Origin: Nitrosovibrio sp. Nv17
GTDB taxonomy: Bacteria; Pseudomonadota; Gammaproteobacteria; Burkholderiales; Nitrosomonadaceae
Length of the DNA: 55,876 bases
Reading direction: 5' to 3'
NCBI RefSeq assembly: GCF_900119085.1
Contig: NZ_FPIQ01000019.1
Coordinates: 3,253-59,128, forward strand
A program made the position numbers and the translations under genes. The notes under the pieces were generated by a model that was given only the letters and a program-made list of their open reading frames with translations, was not told where the DNA came from and made no database searches. Below are positions 1-4,820 of the stretch, piece by piece; positions within the stretch are counted from its first letter, which is position 1; each line of letters starts with the position of its first letter.

Positions 1-36
1 GTTCCGGCCAGAGCGCAAATCCCAACCTGCTATACT
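1..36 (+). CRISPR. Terminal repeat of a type II-C CRISPR array
   Basis: The first 36 bases behave as a CRISPR repeat. Bases 8-26 are a perfect 19-nt reverse complement of 4536-4554, the anti-repeat of the tracrRNA upstream of cas9. Pairing with that tracrRNA means the crRNA is transcribed on the plus strand, toward cas2. The repeat ends in TGCTATACT, an extended -10 promoter element. Type II-C repeats of Neisseria carry such an element so that each crRNA can be transcribed from its own repeat. The rest of the array lies left of the window, so only one repeat is seen and repeat length is inferred from the family norm. As the repeat next to cas2, it is probably the leader-distal one. Confidence 0.85.
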
Positions 37-42
37 CGAAAC

Positions 43-76
43 TCACCATCCTCTTGATAAATATAGAGGATGGTGA
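43..76. terminator. Perfect 12-bp hairpin between array end and cas2
   Basis: Bases 43-54 (TCACCATCCTCT) and 65-76 are perfect reverse complements around a 10-nt loop. The hairpin lies between the last repeat and the 3' end of cas2, where the plus-strand crRNA transcript and the minus-strand cas mRNA converge, so a bidirectional terminator or RNA-stabilising stem is likely. No long U tract follows on either strand, so it is not a textbook intrinsic terminator. Confidence 0.55.
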
Positions 77-105
77 ATATCGGGCGTCCAGAGCCATGGT
101 AATCT

Positions 106-432
106 CTAAAACAAACAGTACTGATCTGGAGATTTTTTGGACGCTCGTTTGATTTTTCCATAGAAAGTAATAATGCGTTCGTACTGCTTATCCGTAAATT
201 GCAAAATATTTACCCTCCCCCCACTGGGCAAACACCTCTCCACTTGTGAGCAATAAGTATCGACCTGGCCTTGACTGTTACAAAATCGCATGTAAACAGA
301 AAACTGCGACATCTCAAATCCCATATCAAGTAACGCATTCCGAAATTCTGTCGCTGCCTTACGCTCAGCTCTCTCAATCACTGGCAAATCGAACATCACC
401 ATGATCCACATGAGTCGATATCCAGATAACAT
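106..432 (-). CDS. cas2: CRISPR-associated endonuclease Cas2
   Basis: 108 aa, the usual Cas2 length. It begins with a ferredoxin-like beta strand ending in MVMFDLP, which carries the conserved Asp (D15). Cas2 dimers bridge two Cas1 dimers in the complex that integrates new spacers. It is the last gene of the minus-strand cas9-cas1-cas2 operon, 15 bp after cas1, and ends about 70 bp from the CRISPR repeat. The gene is AT-rich like the rest of the cas block. The identification rests on motif, size and context. Confidence 0.93.
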   Translation of the reverse strand: MLSGYRLMWIMVMFDLPVIERAERKAATEFRNALLDMGFEMSQFSVYMRFCNSQGQVDTYCSQVERCLPSGGRVNILQFTDKQYERIITFYGKIKRASKKSPDQYCLF

Positions 433-447
433 TTTTCGGACTATTTC

Positions 448-1371
448 TCAGTTTAGTGCGGAAGCCATATCTATAGGCAATCCGGGAAGGGGTAAATCAA
501 GCTTGTTTCTTTCACCTATAAATACCTGAGCCAATGAAGTAGCCAGCCTCTGAACGCAAACTAGGACAGGCGTTGCTCCCATACCAGTTTGCATATCTTC
601 ATATATCGTCCTAACCAATGCGCGCTTGCTCTCAGATGTAATCAATCTCTCTCCATTTCTGTTCAGCAACCACACCTTCAGATCAATGATGGGGCGAAAA
701 GGCTCCATCAGATCATCCACTAACCGCATGGCATTCCCCTCATTCCGATGATGTATTCCAAGGGTTGGGTGTAGCCCTGCCGCCACTACTGACCTCGCTG
801 TAGCGGCCCGCAGAACTGTATATCCATAATTTAGCATGGCATTCAATCCCCCTTCCTGCTGATCGCGTCGAAAATCACTACCAAATAATAGGCCCCAGTA
901 ACGCCGTGCTCCCTGTGCTTCGAGATTATCCGGATCTCCAGACCGCACCTTACGGATCAAATATCGAAGGGGTATATCTGGTGCACCGGTAGCTTCAAGA
1001 ACAATGGCTTGCTGTTGCAGTTTGGATTTGACAATCTCAGCCCACAAACGCTTCATCAATGGTTGTCCGGCCGCAAGCTGCGCATCGAAACGCTTGGCCT
1101 GCTGATAATTTCCATCAATAGTCACCAGCATGCCTACAGCATTATGGTTTGCGGCACACAATACAAAAGGAACACAGCGCTCGGTTAAGGCCACCAACAG
1201 GTTATTGGTGTAGCTGAGGCCATGTGCATTGGCTATAAGCGCAACAATATCATCCAGAGGAACCTGACCGAGCTCCTTGCGCTCACCCTGTGTATCCTGC
1301 ACCACCAGAAAACCTCGAGAAAGAAACAGATGCCGGCGGTCATCAGCAATTTCGACGATGCGTCCTATCAC
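448..1371 (-). CDS. cas1: CRISPR-associated integrase Cas1 (type II)
   Basis: 307 aa. The metal-binding triad of Cas1 is visible: E151 in EAQGARRYW, His in the GIHH motif at 205-208, and Asp in LVDDLMEPFRP near 217-226. Cas1 is the integrase that inserts protospacers at the leader end of the array, working with Cas2 and, in type II systems, with Cas9 and often Csn2. No csn2 or cas4 lies in this locus, which identifies it as subtype II-C. The gene starts 5 bp after the cas9 stop, so the three genes are probably co-transcribed. All catalytic residues appear intact. Confidence 0.96.
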   Translation of the reverse strand: MIGRIVEIADDRRHLFLSRGFLVVQDTQGERKELGQVPLDDIVALIANAHGLSYTNNLLVALTERCVPFVLCAANHNAVGMLVTIDGNYQQAKRFDAQLAAGQPLMKRLWAEIVKSKLQQQAIVLEATGAPDIPLRYLIRKVRSGDPDNLEAQGARRYWGLLFGSDFRRDQQEGGLNAMLNYGYTVLRAATARSVVAAGLHPTLGIHHRNEGNAMRLVDDLMEPFRPIIDLKVWLLNRNGERLITSESKRALVRTIYEDMQTGMGATPVLVCVQRLATSLAQVFIGERNKLDLPLPGLPIDMASALN

Positions 1372-1376
1372 TCGGA

Positions 1377-4300
1377 CTATCCTTTAAAACCAGGATCCTG
1401 GAGCTTTCCTGTTGGTGAAATCGTAACACGGCGCGCTTTGAGCAATTGAAGAGAGCTGGCTTTCTTTGAGATATACGAAAAAGGGTCTTCTTTGTTTCTG
1501 TTTCTCGCGTCGACATTTGCTTCATTTATATCAGCCATAAATACTTGTCCATTACTACTCAACTTCGCTACTCGCATTACCCGCAATATCCCATCAATAT
1601 GCAATCGAATCGTATCGTCGATCATCAACCGCATCACCAGTGATTCTCCGTTAAATCCCGTGCGAGAATCTCTTAGCTTTGCAATCCCACCCTTACGCAC
1701 TATTTGATATGCCATATATGTCGAAATGACATTCCCTTTCCATTTTCCACCTTCATCGCAAATGATTTCGATACAGTAATTGCTATCTCCTTTGTAACCC
1801 TTATAAGGACGCGGCTCTCCATTCGGTAAGAAGCCATGCCGATCCCCCACGCCGGTATCCGTGATTTCTATGACCTTCAAGTTCTCCTCTATATATATAC
1901 GTTGCCCCCCTTCCACCTTATGAAAGCCAATTTTTCCATCGCCGAGCAGGCCATATGCAGTATCATTGTGCATGGCACCTTCATGACCATGGTCTGGCTT
2001 ATGGCTGGTGTAAGTATGCCTAATCGCACGTTCCACATGTTCCCGATAACTCTCCCACGGCAAGGGCATGTTCGCCACAAGCCGATCTAGTTGGCTCTCT
2101 CGTGAACTGGCGCTGGCGGATGCAAACCGCTGTAACAAACCCTGGTCAGTTACAGCTATCACACAAGCATCCACCGCATGATGACGATGATCATTACGAT
2201 TCTTTTCACCCCTCAACCCCAGAATACCATTCAACCCCAGCTTTGCACGCAATAGGGCTGTCATTCGCCCAGGAATGACACGGGTATGCGGGCAAATCAA
2301 GCTTAGATACTCCTTGGCAACCCTGCTCATATACCGCGTGTCATTCAACGCACGTGCAAGAAAACCAGCATCATCTTTCAACCAATTCCGATAACCATCC
2401 TCGCCAAAGCGATAGCGCTTGGCCTTAGGCATACGCTCGGCCCTTTCCAAGATATCAGAATAATCAAAACCACTTGGATTTTGTGCCCCAAAAGCATCCC
2501 AGGGAGTGCGATTACCTTTGGCCCGATTGGCAAGACGAAGACAGACAGTTTTATTGTTCAGGCTATCATCCAAGGTTTGAGAGAAAGGTAAAATATGCTC
2601 AACCTCCACTTCGTCGCTTAGCAGCATGCTCACACTGATCTGTGTCCCTGAGTAAGGGCAGCGACGATCCGCTGGATCCGATCCCAGTTCCTCCCACAGA
2701 ATCATTTTCTGAATATCTGCATTTCTCACTCTTTCCTCATCGACATTCAGAATCCGCGCAATCTCTGCACGTAATCGTCTATTACGTTTTTGATTCTCAG
2801 CCTGACGCTTATTTTCCTCATTACGCTGATCCTTACTTTGCTTCAAGTCCCGGGCCACCTCCACAATTACCTCACTGGGATGCCCATACCGCTTGATCAG
2901 GGCGTTCACAACAAGACGTACTTGATTCAAGCAAACGTGTACGGTGGGATTGGCTATTCGGCCATAGCGTTTTTCATCTTTATCCTGAGGATCGTTGCTC
3001 CCGAAGCCGACATGGCGTTGCAAGGCTCTTCCATAATAGGGTAATTCCAACAGTACTTCGCCGGTGACTGATGCACCAATGTGACTGTGATGTTCAAAAC
3101 CTGCAGCTATCACCGCTTTGTCATACGTAATCACCTCTCTGCGTAACTCTGGAAGAATGCGATCTATAGCTATCTTGCATAATCCTCCGTAGCCTTCCGG
3201 CAATCCAACATTGGCAATGGCTTCCGCGCGCTCCTCATCCACATCTGTTTCATTACGCAACCAGGAAATCAATTGGCTCATGTTTTCTTCTTTACACAGC
3301 TTTAGAACTATCTCATCCTGTTTTTCCTCACTAAATGAGAACCAGTCTTCTCCGAAATACTTATCTTTGCTCAAAATAGCATTGGTAATGTTGCCTTTGA
3401 GTTCCTGGCGTCTCTGATCTTCCAGATTGAATTGTACCGAGCCGTTCATTCCCAACAATTTCTTTATCTCGGGAAACGTACGCTTACCATATCTCTCAAG
3501 AGATCCAACGAGATCATCACGTTGCTTTAACGTAAGTGTTTCCTCTTTCAAATTTTCGCCCAGAATACGCAAGTTATTCACTTCCTGATACAGGCGAAAA
3601 CGTTGCACGCTGGGCAACGCCATCGGTGCACGCTCTTCATCGGGAATGAATGTACAACGACCCGGTCTGATTGGTTTGAGAGGCCTCTGATAAAGCAATA
3701 TATCCTTGAGTTCTATACGTGCCGCTTCATTGAACAACACCGGATTGAATTCGGATTGACTCTTCCATAAAACATCGAATTCCTGCTCGATCATGGCACG
3801 ATCGACATAAAGATCGTAATTTTTGTTAATACGCGTTTTCCCATCATCATTGATGGTTCTTTTTTCTCTGTACCGTGCTCGGACACCCCATCCCAATTTA
3901 TGGCGGTTGTTCAACCATTCGCCCACCGTGCGACAATTCTCCGATGCAAGGGCATTTCTCAAACGAGTGATGGCCGTCTTCAATACACTGGAGTCATCGT
4001 TCTTTTGGTCTGTTTTACGATTGCTCTTGAATCCACGTCGTTGGTTGATATGAAACAATGCACGACCAAATTCCCCGGGAGTGAGTGCCTCATTCAATCC
4101 CTTTGCCCGCAGAAAATAAGGATCCAGAAGCTCCAATGCCTTGCGTTGAGCCTTCTCTGAAGGAAAAAATCCGTATTGGATCAGGGCATTCAACATTCGG
4201 CACCTACGCCTCAAGAAGCGATCACGACGCCTTCGCATGGCTCGAGCCTTCCGCCTCGTAACAGCCAATGAAGATCCATCCTTTGGATTCCGGCCATCTG

Positions 4301-4436
4301 AGAAAATACGTACCCCGGTTTTTATTACCGCACAGGGCTGATCGCTCGTATCCAGGCGAACCAGCGCCCATCCGATCGATGTCGACCCCAAATCGAGGCC
4401 CAAGCGATAGCGCATTTTATGTAACATGGTTCGCAC
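1377..4436 (-). CDS. cas9: Type II-C RNA-guided endonuclease Cas9
   Basis: 1019 aa, a compact Cas9 (the Neisseria enzyme is about 1080 aa). RuvC-I is GLDLGSTSIGW with D15. The arginine-rich bridge helix spans about 61-82. RuvC-II is VIVEVARD with E526. The HNH core is EVEHILPFS with H614 and N627/N628 in SLNNKT. RuvC-III is HRHHAVDAC with H753 and D756. All nuclease residues are present, so both strands of a target should be cut. The ATG at 4436 has a GAGGAGGGG ribosome site upstream, while the next Met (residue 8) has none, so I keep the longer start. The PAM-interacting C-terminus is too divergent for a PAM prediction. First gene of the cas9-cas1-cas2 operon, divergent from the tracrRNA. 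Confidence 0.97.
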   Translation of the reverse strand: MRTMLHKMRYRLGLDLGSTSIGWALVRLDTSDQPCAVIKTGVRIFSDGRNPKDGSSLAVTRRKARAMRRRRDRFLRRRCRMLNALIQYGFFPSEKAQRKALELLDPYFLRAKGLNEALTPGEFGRALFHINQRRGFKSNRKTDQKNDDSSVLKTAITRLRNALASENCRTVGEWLNNRHKLGWGVRARYREKRTINDDGKTRINKNYDLYVDRAMIEQEFDVLWKSQSEFNPVLFNEAARIELKDILLYQRPLKPIRPGRCTFIPDEERAPMALPSVQRFRLYQEVNNLRILGENLKEETLTLKQRDDLVGSLERYGKRTFPEIKKLLGMNGSVQFNLEDQRRQELKGNITNAILSKDKYFGEDWFSFSEEKQDEIVLKLCKEENMSQLISWLRNETDVDEERAEAIANVGLPEGYGGLCKIAIDRILPELRREVITYDKAVIAAGFEHHSHIGASVTGEVLLELPYYGRALQRHVGFGSNDPQDKDEKRYGRIANPTVHVCLNQVRLVVNALIKRYGHPSEVIVEVARDLKQSKDQRNEENKRQAENQKRNRRLRAEIARILNVDEERVRNADIQKMILWEELGSDPADRRCPYSGTQISVSMLLSDEVEVEHILPFSQTLDDSLNNKTVCLRLANRAKGNRTPWDAFGAQNPSGFDYSDILERAERMPKAKRYRFGEDGYRNWLKDDAGFLARALNDTRYMSRVAKEYLSLICPHTRVIPGRMTALLRAKLGLNGILGLRGEKNRNDHRHHAVDACVIAVTDQGLLQRFASASASSRESQLDRLVANMPLPWESYREHVERAIRHTYTSHKPDHGHEGAMHNDTAYGLLGDGKIGFHKVEGGQRIYIEENLKVIEITDTGVGDRHGFLPNGEPRPYKGYKGDSNYCIEIICDEGGKWKGNVISTYMAYQIVRKGGIAKLRDSRTGFNGESLVMRLMIDDTIRLHIDGILRVMRVAKLSSNGQVFMADINEANVDARNRNKEDPFSYISKKASSLQLLKARRVTISPTGKLQDPGFKG

Positions 4437-4489
4437 CCCTCCTCTTTTGCTGGGAACCTATGAAACTTTCTTCGAATCCCTATTATCCC

Positions 4490-4518
4490 TTGACGCCTCA
4501 GCATTTTGCCATTATAGT
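4490..4518 (+). promoter_or_regulatory. Sigma-70 promoter of the tracrRNA
   Basis: TTGACG (4490-4495), a 17-bp spacer and TATAGT (4513-4518) make a near-consensus promoter. The predicted start is near 4525, about 11 nt before the anti-repeat core. On the opposite strand 4516-4511 reads TATAAT, a possible -10 for cas9, but its -35 is poor. The two divergent promoters may overlap. Confidence 0.8.
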
Positions 4519-4524
4519 CATCAA

Positions 4525-4614
4525 TACGCTAGTAAGTTGGGATTTGCGCTCTGGACGCTAACAAGCTGAAAGATGCACTAAATGATAAGGCCGCTATATG
4601 CGGCCTTATTTCAT
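4525..4614 (+). ncRNA. tracrRNA of the II-C CRISPR-Cas9 system
   Basis: A roughly 85-90 nt RNA is predicted from a consensus promoter to an intrinsic terminator. Bases 4536-4554 are a perfect 19-nt complement of CRISPR repeat bases 8-26, with weaker pairing on both sides, so this is the anti-repeat. The following CTGAAAGATG resembles the CUGAAAAGAUG element after the anti-repeat in Neisseria tracrRNA. The RNA pairs with pre-crRNA repeats, is trimmed if RNase III acts, and loads Cas9. It is transcribed divergently from cas9. The exact 5' end is inferred. Confidence 0.88.
4587..4614 (+). terminator. Intrinsic terminator of the tracrRNA
   Basis: AAGGCCGC (4587-4594), loop TATAT and GCGGCCTT (4600-4607) form a perfect 8-bp stem followed by ATTTCATTT. 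This sets the 3' end of the tracrRNA and may also be the terminal hairpin bound by Cas9. Confidence 0.85.
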
Positions 4615-4820
4615 TTATCCTTGAAGCGATTCGTTGCCAGCTTTTCTGGATTATGAGTCTTGCCTTCCACCCCAACATTCATGACCTATCCTTTTTCAAG
4701 TCGACAATAGCAGACACCTCCAATCAGGACTTGAAGCATAGAAATACAGAAATTTGACGCCCTGCCTCGGCGCCGTGTAACGTTCGGCCCTGATCGAGCA
4801 TCTCCGGAACCTTCCATCCC
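4615..4820. other. Non-coding junction between the cas block and the GC-rich chromosome
   Basis: No convincing gene. The sequence changes from AT-rich (4615 to about 4765) to GC-rich after about 4770. This is the likely right edge of the acquired CRISPR-Cas segment. I saw no tRNA end, direct repeat or insertion-sequence end here. The promoter of the downstream synthase gene should lie here but no clear one was identified. Confidence 0.5.

What the first reader, a model, noticed from the sequence alone, without database searches (positions are those of the whole stretch)
1..4614. Compact type II-C CRISPR-Cas9 locus with intact nuclease and tracrRNA
Seen: 1019-aa Cas9 with all RuvC (D15, E526, H753, D756) and HNH (H614) residues, cas1, cas2 and no csn2 or cas4. 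A tracrRNA with a 19-nt perfect anti-repeat is fully delimited by a consensus promoter and a terminator. Known: such small II-C enzymes vary widely in PAM and temperature range. Inference: a functional system whose PAM is not predictable from this sequence.
Basis: partly seen in the sequence, partly recalled or inferred. Interest (0 to 1): 0.8.

Follow-up and report, generated by a model that had tools for sequence, protein, structure and literature searches.

The report
Intact type II-C CRISPR-Cas9 locus
This is a complete, normal-looking CRISPR-Cas9 immune locus of a kind shared by many betaproteobacteria; the useful extra is a first hint of which short DNA tag (PAM) this Cas9 group looks for.

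Summary
Window 1-4614 holds tracrRNA, cas9 (1019 aa), cas1 and cas2; a 36-nt repeat array continues left of position 1 (six repeat copies, two of them partial, and three spacers readable; the rest reads N). The 19-nt anti-repeat is real: across 49 loci repeat and anti-repeat change together (0 of 2000 shuffles reach the observed pairing). All 51 repeats compared end in a -10-like hexamer, as in C. jejuni, where each repeat is a promoter. It is a new member of a known kind (61 related loci, Cas9 56-72% identical), foreign in composition (47% vs 67% GC). Its PAM-interacting region has no sequence relative among solved structures but a Cas9-like predicted fold. 'PAM not predictable' is too strong: seven protospacers of relatives have G at +2 and a purine at +5; the three from Cas9s of our PI class fit NGCNRT. 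This is provisional: a homologue of one of them has A at +2, and no protospacer was found for the locus's own spacers. In 10 of 59 relatives a toxin-antitoxin-type gene sits between cas9 and cas1.

The parts
1..36 (+). Cas-proximal terminal CRISPR repeat, crRNA sense GTTCCGGCCAGAGCGCAAATCCCAACCTGCTATACT; its 3' end (TGCTATACT) looks like an extended -10 box
   Evidence: five further copies (two partial) on contig C32 left of the window; -10-like 3' hexamer in 51 of 51 repeats compared
37..82 (.). Inverted repeat between array and cas2, probable shared terminator of convergent transcripts
   Evidence: 18-nt arms 37-54 and 65-82, 89% complementary; 14-pair stem at 41-78, 0 of 100 shuffles as long; longest stem in this gap at least 8 pairs in 38 of 50 loci, ours included
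106..432 (-). cas2 (108 aa)
   Evidence: TIGR01573, PF09827, PADLOC Cas2_II
448..1371 (-). cas1 (307 aa), type II
   Evidence: TIGR03639 cas1_NMENI 233 bits, cut-off 120
1377..4436 (-). cas9 (1019 aa), RuvC and HNH residues intact
   Evidence: TIGR01865 639 bits, cut-off 100; catalytic residues conserved
1377..2069 (-). C-terminal part of Cas9 (residues 790-1019) holding the PAM-interacting region, PI class I (my name)
   Evidence: SaCas9-like fold by Foldseek
4490..4518 (+). sigma70-type promoter of the tracrRNA (TTGACG-17-TATAGT)
   Evidence: consensus match only
4525..4614 (+). tracrRNA; anti-repeat 4536-4554, terminator stem 4584-4610
   Evidence: start inferred from the promoter

Best explanation
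A complete type II-C CRISPR-Cas9 adaptive immune locus, acquired horizontally by a Nitrosospira-like ammonia oxidiser. Inferred working: cas9-cas1-cas2 are made as one operon. The tracrRNA is made from its own promoter on the opposite strand. Each repeat starts its own crRNA through its -10-like 3' end, reading towards cas2 and stopping at the hairpin at 37-82. The anti-repeat pairs with the 5' part of the repeat, RNase III trims the duplex, and Cas9 cuts DNA that matches the spacer and carries a 3' PAM. The PAM probably has G at +2 and a purine at +5, perhaps NGCNRT. Cas1-Cas2 add spacers. Shown by sequence: the parts, the residues, the co-variation, the array. Inferred: transcription, processing, cutting, PAM, spacer uptake.
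For: Families; catalytic residues; array on the parent contig; repeat:anti-repeat co-variation in 49 loci, 17.55 of 18 pairs for cognate vs 16.18 (sd 0.10) for shuffled partners, 0 of 2000 shuffles; -10-like repeat ends in 51 of 51, with the C. jejuni precedent (passages of PMC3656092); full-length model matched best to Nme1Cas9 by Foldseek E-value; GC 47% vs 67%; one genus ortholog in 22, at another place; homology with four of four genus members compared starts only at window 4754-4812.
Against: The cas-distal end of the array is cut by an IS630-like transposase fragment, and most of the array is unreadable. Two of three readable spacers differ by one base, and none was matched in viral contigs or 125 family genomes. 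The promoter match is weak statistically. For the PAM: seven flanks only, one homologous site with A at +2 (AH03), and none from this locus.
Confidence: 0.9

Rival explanations
1. A relic: genes still open, but the array no longer takes up spacers because the IS element removed its far end (possibly the leader), so immunity is frozen.
For: IS630-like transposase fragment abuts a truncated repeat at contig 442-471; near-duplicate spacers.
Against: cas1, cas2 and cas9 are all open and match their families; which end is the leader end is not known to me for this family.
Confidence: 0.2
2. Cas9 kept mainly for a non-immune role such as gene regulation.
For: No protospacer found for the locus's own three readable spacers.
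Against: Both nuclease sites are intact; a few spacers of relatives match phage or prophage-like genes; cas1-cas2 retained.
Confidence: 0.04
3. The locus belongs to another organism and was binned into this genome by mistake.
For: GC 47% in the locus vs 67% in the rest of the window.
Against: It lies on one contig with a squalene-synthase-like gene (homologous in 4 of 4 genus members compared) and a transporter gene found in 22 of 22 genus members.
Confidence: 0.03

Closest known systems
Type II-C systems of betaproteobacteria, e.g. Nitrosomonas sp. Nm33 (L058) and Nitrosospira sp. Nsp11 (L038/G010)
   Same: gene order, tracrRNA place, repeat, conserved tracrRNA tail CGCTAACA[AC]G (59 of 61 upstream regions, ours included), hairpin between array and cas2
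   Different: Cas9 56-72% identical across the 61 loci; Nsp11 has a different PI domain (43% identical in that part)
Nme1Cas9 (Neisseria meningitidis)
   Same: best Foldseek E-value for the full model (3e-35, but TM only 0.33); cas9-cas1-cas2 plan (recalled)
   Different: no sequence match of the PI profile to it; Nme1 orthologs typically show minimal or no preference at PAM positions 1-4 (PMC9433092, section 5 read), whereas G at +2 is suggested here
GeoCas9/ThermoCas9
   Same: best PDB sequence match, 239 bits
   Different: the match ends at residue 803, near the start of the C-terminal region
SaCas9 C-terminal domains
   Same: best Foldseek matches of the C-terminal model (E 4e-5); SaCas9's NNGRRT (recalled) also has a purine at 5 and T at 6
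   Different: about 16% identity, TM about 0.4; SaCas9 is type II-A (recalled); base contacts not mapped
C. jejuni minimal type II-C
   Same: -10-like element in the 3' part of each repeat (PMC3656092, passages)
   Different: the TGn of an extended -10 is in only 18 of 51 repeats here, ours among them; no RNA data

Membership tests
Type II-C CRISPR-Cas | cas9 with RuvC and HNH nuclease residues | tested here: met
Type II-C CRISPR-Cas | cas1 and cas2 of type II next to cas9 | tested here: met
Type II-C CRISPR-Cas | no csn2 (II-A) and no cas4 (II-B) in the operon | tested here: met
   no room for a further gene between tracrRNA, cas9, cas1, cas2 and array; csn2/cas4 not searched elsewhere in the genome
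Type II-C CRISPR-Cas | tracrRNA complementary to the repeat | tested here: met
   19 contiguous pairs plus co-variation in 49 loci
Type II-C CRISPR-Cas | repeat-spacer array | tested here: met
   36-nt repeats, spacers of 31, 30 and 30 nt; six copies readable, two partial
Type II-C CRISPR-Cas | Cas9 groups with II-C Cas9s | tested here: inconclusive
   top sequence and fold matches are Geo/Thermo/Nme Cas9, which I recall as II-C; no tree with II-A/II-B outgroups was built
Type II-C CRISPR-Cas | array transcribed against the cas operon | tested here: inconclusive
   follows from repeat orientation and -10-like ends; no RNA data
Nme-type (N4-anchored) PAM | little or no base preference at PAM +1 to +4 | tested here: inconclusive
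   G at +2 in 7 of 7 chosen protospacers of relatives argues against it, a homologous site with A for it; none is from this locus

The most novel reading that the evidence does not exclude
This betaproteobacterial Cas9 family reads a PAM with a fixed G at +2 and a purine at +5, and swaps the rest (NGCNRT for the PI class of this Cas9, NGNAAG for the Nsp11 class) by exchanging PI-domain modules on a nearly constant nuclease body, giving a compact Cas9 with a PAM geometry unlike the Nme group's.
Probability: 0.35. Interest if true: 0.45.

Novelty: new member of a known kind. Interest (0 to 1): 0.3.

Why it matters
It adds a complete, compact (1019 aa) Cas9 with a delimited guide-RNA scaffold from an ammonia oxidiser, and gives a concrete, testable PAM guess for a betaproteobacterial Cas9 family whose PAM-interacting region has no sequence relative in the PDB. 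The discrete PI classes on one nuclease body are a natural series for asking how PAM specificity changes.

Tried and rejected
Own spacers: two 20-21-base patterns from the PAM-proximal ends of the three readable spacers found nothing in viral contigs; the readable array stretch in 125 family genomes gave arrays and weak matches only. Weak matches rejected as chance: G017 (not aligned by hand); G095, 9 mismatches; 13 viral contigs with the 16-mer of an L053 spacer, none within 7 mismatches over the full spacer. G088 was fetched and gave no spacer match within 9 mismatches. Weak matches of G005 and G025 and single repeat-like matches in G083, G092:C59 and G133 were not followed.

Protospacer searches that gave none: L018, L048, L056, L027, L026, L029 arrays in phages; L010 and L048 in plasmids, only a related Limnohabitans array; L058, G090, G092 arrays in the family; L010 array in 399 genomes of the order, array-like matches only (places not inspected); two L025 spacers in viral contigs. 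The genome searches score only two or three candidates per genome with these queries, so misses there are weak.

Rfam: no match at E up to 1 on L007, the contig's first 8300 bases, so the tracrRNA rests on co-variation. Full-length model: mean pLDDT 71, pTM 0.41, too weak for residue-level PAM contacts; mapping PAM residues was dropped. Considered and rejected: a second Cas9 in the genome (one match only).

Papers: two searches held no paper; the listings (20 of 50, 10 of 14 and 5 of 5 shown) name none on these Cas9s by title. The catalogue of 79 Cas9s (PMC7606464) was seen as passages: three genus names tried are not in its main text, but its species list is in supplements I could not read, so a family member may have been tested there. 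PMC3936727 was seen as passages only.

Full report
Place. The window is contig C32, 3253-59128, of a 2.84-Mb genome. Its GTDB genus is that of Nitrosospira sp. Nsp11: genome G010 is 'same genus', and its contig of 272,063 bases has the same length as the Nsp11 record listed, and the same spacers. That naming is my inference.

Observation. cas2 (106-432), cas1 (448-1371) and cas9 (1377-4436) are all on the minus strand and open. They match Cas2, type II Cas1 and Cas9 models above curated cut-offs and PADLOC Cas1_II, Cas2_II and Cas9. Of 61 related loci, 59 gave a Cas9 frame long enough to align; the two dropped, L059 and L065, have Cas9 split over two open frames. In those 59, E526, H614, N637, H753 and D756 are invariant. 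D15 is D in all 56 whose frame reaches it; the frames used for L042, L045 and L057 do not (one search counted 57 because L045 was aligned there by chance).

Array. The window begins in the last repeat. On the contig to its left five more copies are readable, two of them partial. Two runs of N (1239 and 1314 bases) hide the rest; the distances across them (1271 and 1350) are not whole numbers of 66-base units, which fits gaps of estimated size, but I cannot tell assembly gaps from withheld sequence. The three readable spacers are 31, 30 and 30 nt; the last two differ by one base. At the cas-distal end a transposase fragment with a DDE_3 domain (IS630-like by recall) abuts a truncated repeat. 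End to end the array region spans about 2.85 kb, some 43 units if it is all array.

Guide RNAs. The 19-nt anti-repeat is at 4536-4554. In 49 loci (ours included) with both a repeat and an anti-repeat, cognate partners form on average 17.55 of 18 pairs; partners dealt at random form 16.18 (sd 0.10), and 0 of 2000 shuffles reach the observed value. Several pairs show changes on both sides. Shuffling does not correct for relatedness. Three of the 49 pair less well (L066 13, L030 9, L048 16); L030 has one extra base before the tail and is misaligned by my fixed register. The tracrRNA tail CGCTAACA[AC]G is found in 59 of 61 regions upstream of cas9, ours included; L042 and L055 lack it. Folding of 4527-4618 gives z = -3.15. 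All 51 repeats (50 loci plus ours) end in a hexamer of the form TANNNT, and 18 of 51, ours included, also have the TGn of an extended -10 box. In C. jejuni such ends are promoters that start each crRNA within the spacer (passages of PMC3656092); the same is inferred here. Between array and cas2 lies a 14-pair inverted repeat (0 of 100 shuffles as long). In 38 of 50 loci, ours included, the longest stem in that gap has at least 8 pairs; in 12 it has fewer, and in some of the 38 the longest stem is not next to the repeat or is not beyond chance.

Origin. The locus has 47% GC against 67% for the rest of the window; five other contigs of the genome sampled at one end have 57-65%. Among 22 other genus members one, G010, has an ortholog (67% identity); two more (G013, G018) have only distant Cas9 matches. 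In G010 the cas9 contig (C19) differs from the one with the neighbouring transporter gene (C15), a gene found in 22 of 22 genus members. In four of four genus members compared, homology to the window starts at 4754-4812, just right of the tracrRNA. A Limnohabitans plasmid, pTEGF4, carries the same kind of locus at 64.5% Cas9 identity. Horizontal acquisition is the simplest reading.

PI domain. The best-scoring phmmer stretches against solved Cas9s end at residue 853 or before. A 30-sequence profile of residues 790-1019 finds no Cas9 in the PDB up to E = 1; one unrelated chain scored 0.58. The predicted model of this part (pLDDT 75) matches SaCas9 best by Foldseek (E 4e-5, TM about 0.4) and mostly other Cas9s after it. 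So the fold is a Cas9 C-terminal fold with diverged sequence. Within the family, residues 956-1000 fall into discrete classes; ours is marked NGQ[IV]F..EANVDARNR (classes drawn by eye).

PAM. 392 spacers from 17 arrays were searched against phages; three spacers gave a plausible protospacer. L010 spacer 1 in Xanthomonas phage Pfeifenkraut: 28 of 30, flank TGCGGTCA. The same gene in PaMx42 (3 mismatches) and LPPA15 (2) gives TGCGGTCA and TGCGGTCG; in Erwinia phage AH03 (2) it gives TACGGTCA, with A at +2; these are homologues, not counted apart. An L044 spacer in Limnohabitans phage DC31: 28 of 30, E 0.04, flank TGCGATAA; one virome contig has the same flank. An L025 spacer in a river Microviridae genome: 29 of 30, flank GGCCATGC. 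All three Cas9s are of the PI class of ours. The class was drawn, after the L010 flank was known but before the other two. From 20 Nsp11 spacers in 125 family genomes three protospacers were found: TGCAAGCG, AGGAAGCA, GGAAAGAG, with 3, 3 and 0 mismatches; the first two lie on one contig of G020, about 14 kb apart. From 14 G029 spacers one was found with 4 mismatches: GGGTAATT. Over these seven, +2 is G in 7 of 7 and +5 is A in 6 and G in 1; no 5' flank position exceeds 4 of 7. Seven random flanks share some position with probability 0.0026; three random flanks share at least three of eight positions with probability 0.012 and at least four with 0.001. The class of our Cas9 reads NGCNRT (n = 3, three fixed positions), the Nsp11 class NGNAAG (n = 3, four fixed positions). 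This is a lead, not a result: small n, several accepted mismatches, and no protospacer for this locus itself.

Verdict. An ordinary but complete and well-conserved type II-C locus, probably working: a new member of a known kind. What the tools add is the array, the co-variation of the guide-RNA pair, evidence of mobility, the PI classes and a testable PAM guess.

Noticed in passing
L025, L032, L036, L037, L040, L043, L047, L057, L060 (between cas9 and cas1); L023 likewise: In 9 of 59 relatives a Gp49/RelE-like gene followed by an HI1420-type antidote-like gene sits between cas9 and cas1, and in L023 a BrnT-like gene does (Pfam run on 4 example proteins only: the Gp49-type of L036 and L037, the antidote of L036, the BrnT of L023; the rest by motif). 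An 11th locus, L044, has a gap without such genes. One paper search showed no title reporting it; listing only seen.
   Followed up: partly
L007:3-471: Transposase fragment (DDE_3; IS630-like by recall) at the contig end abuts a truncated CRISPR repeat, so an insertion cut the cas-distal part of the array.
   Followed up: partly
L007:1807-1836 and 1873-1902: Two neighbouring spacers differ by a single base (TGAGGAGAGGGTGAAGAACAGGAGGAGAGG and the same with C at base 25).
   Followed up: partly
L038, L048, L049, L051 versus the rest of alignment A1: The start of the C-terminal region exists in two versions (HEGAMHNDTAYG, and FEGSMFKETSYG or like it) on similar nuclease bodies, suggesting domain swaps.
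   Followed up: no
window 4700-55876: GC of the chromosomal part of the window is about 67%, while three same-genus genomes have about 55% around the same transporter gene at 86-87% protein identity.
   Followed up: no
L052:10031-10863; L059 and L065 cas9: A gene that looks like a transposase (by eye, no family search) lies between cas1 and cas2 in L052; cas9 is split over two open frames in L059 and L065.
   Followed up: no
G106:C1:1359237-1359663 and 2873179-2873689: A Nitrosomonas relative (by contig coordinates the MAG_20 record of L009) carries two separate stretches that match the same kind of repeat array, 1.5 Mb apart.
   Followed up: no
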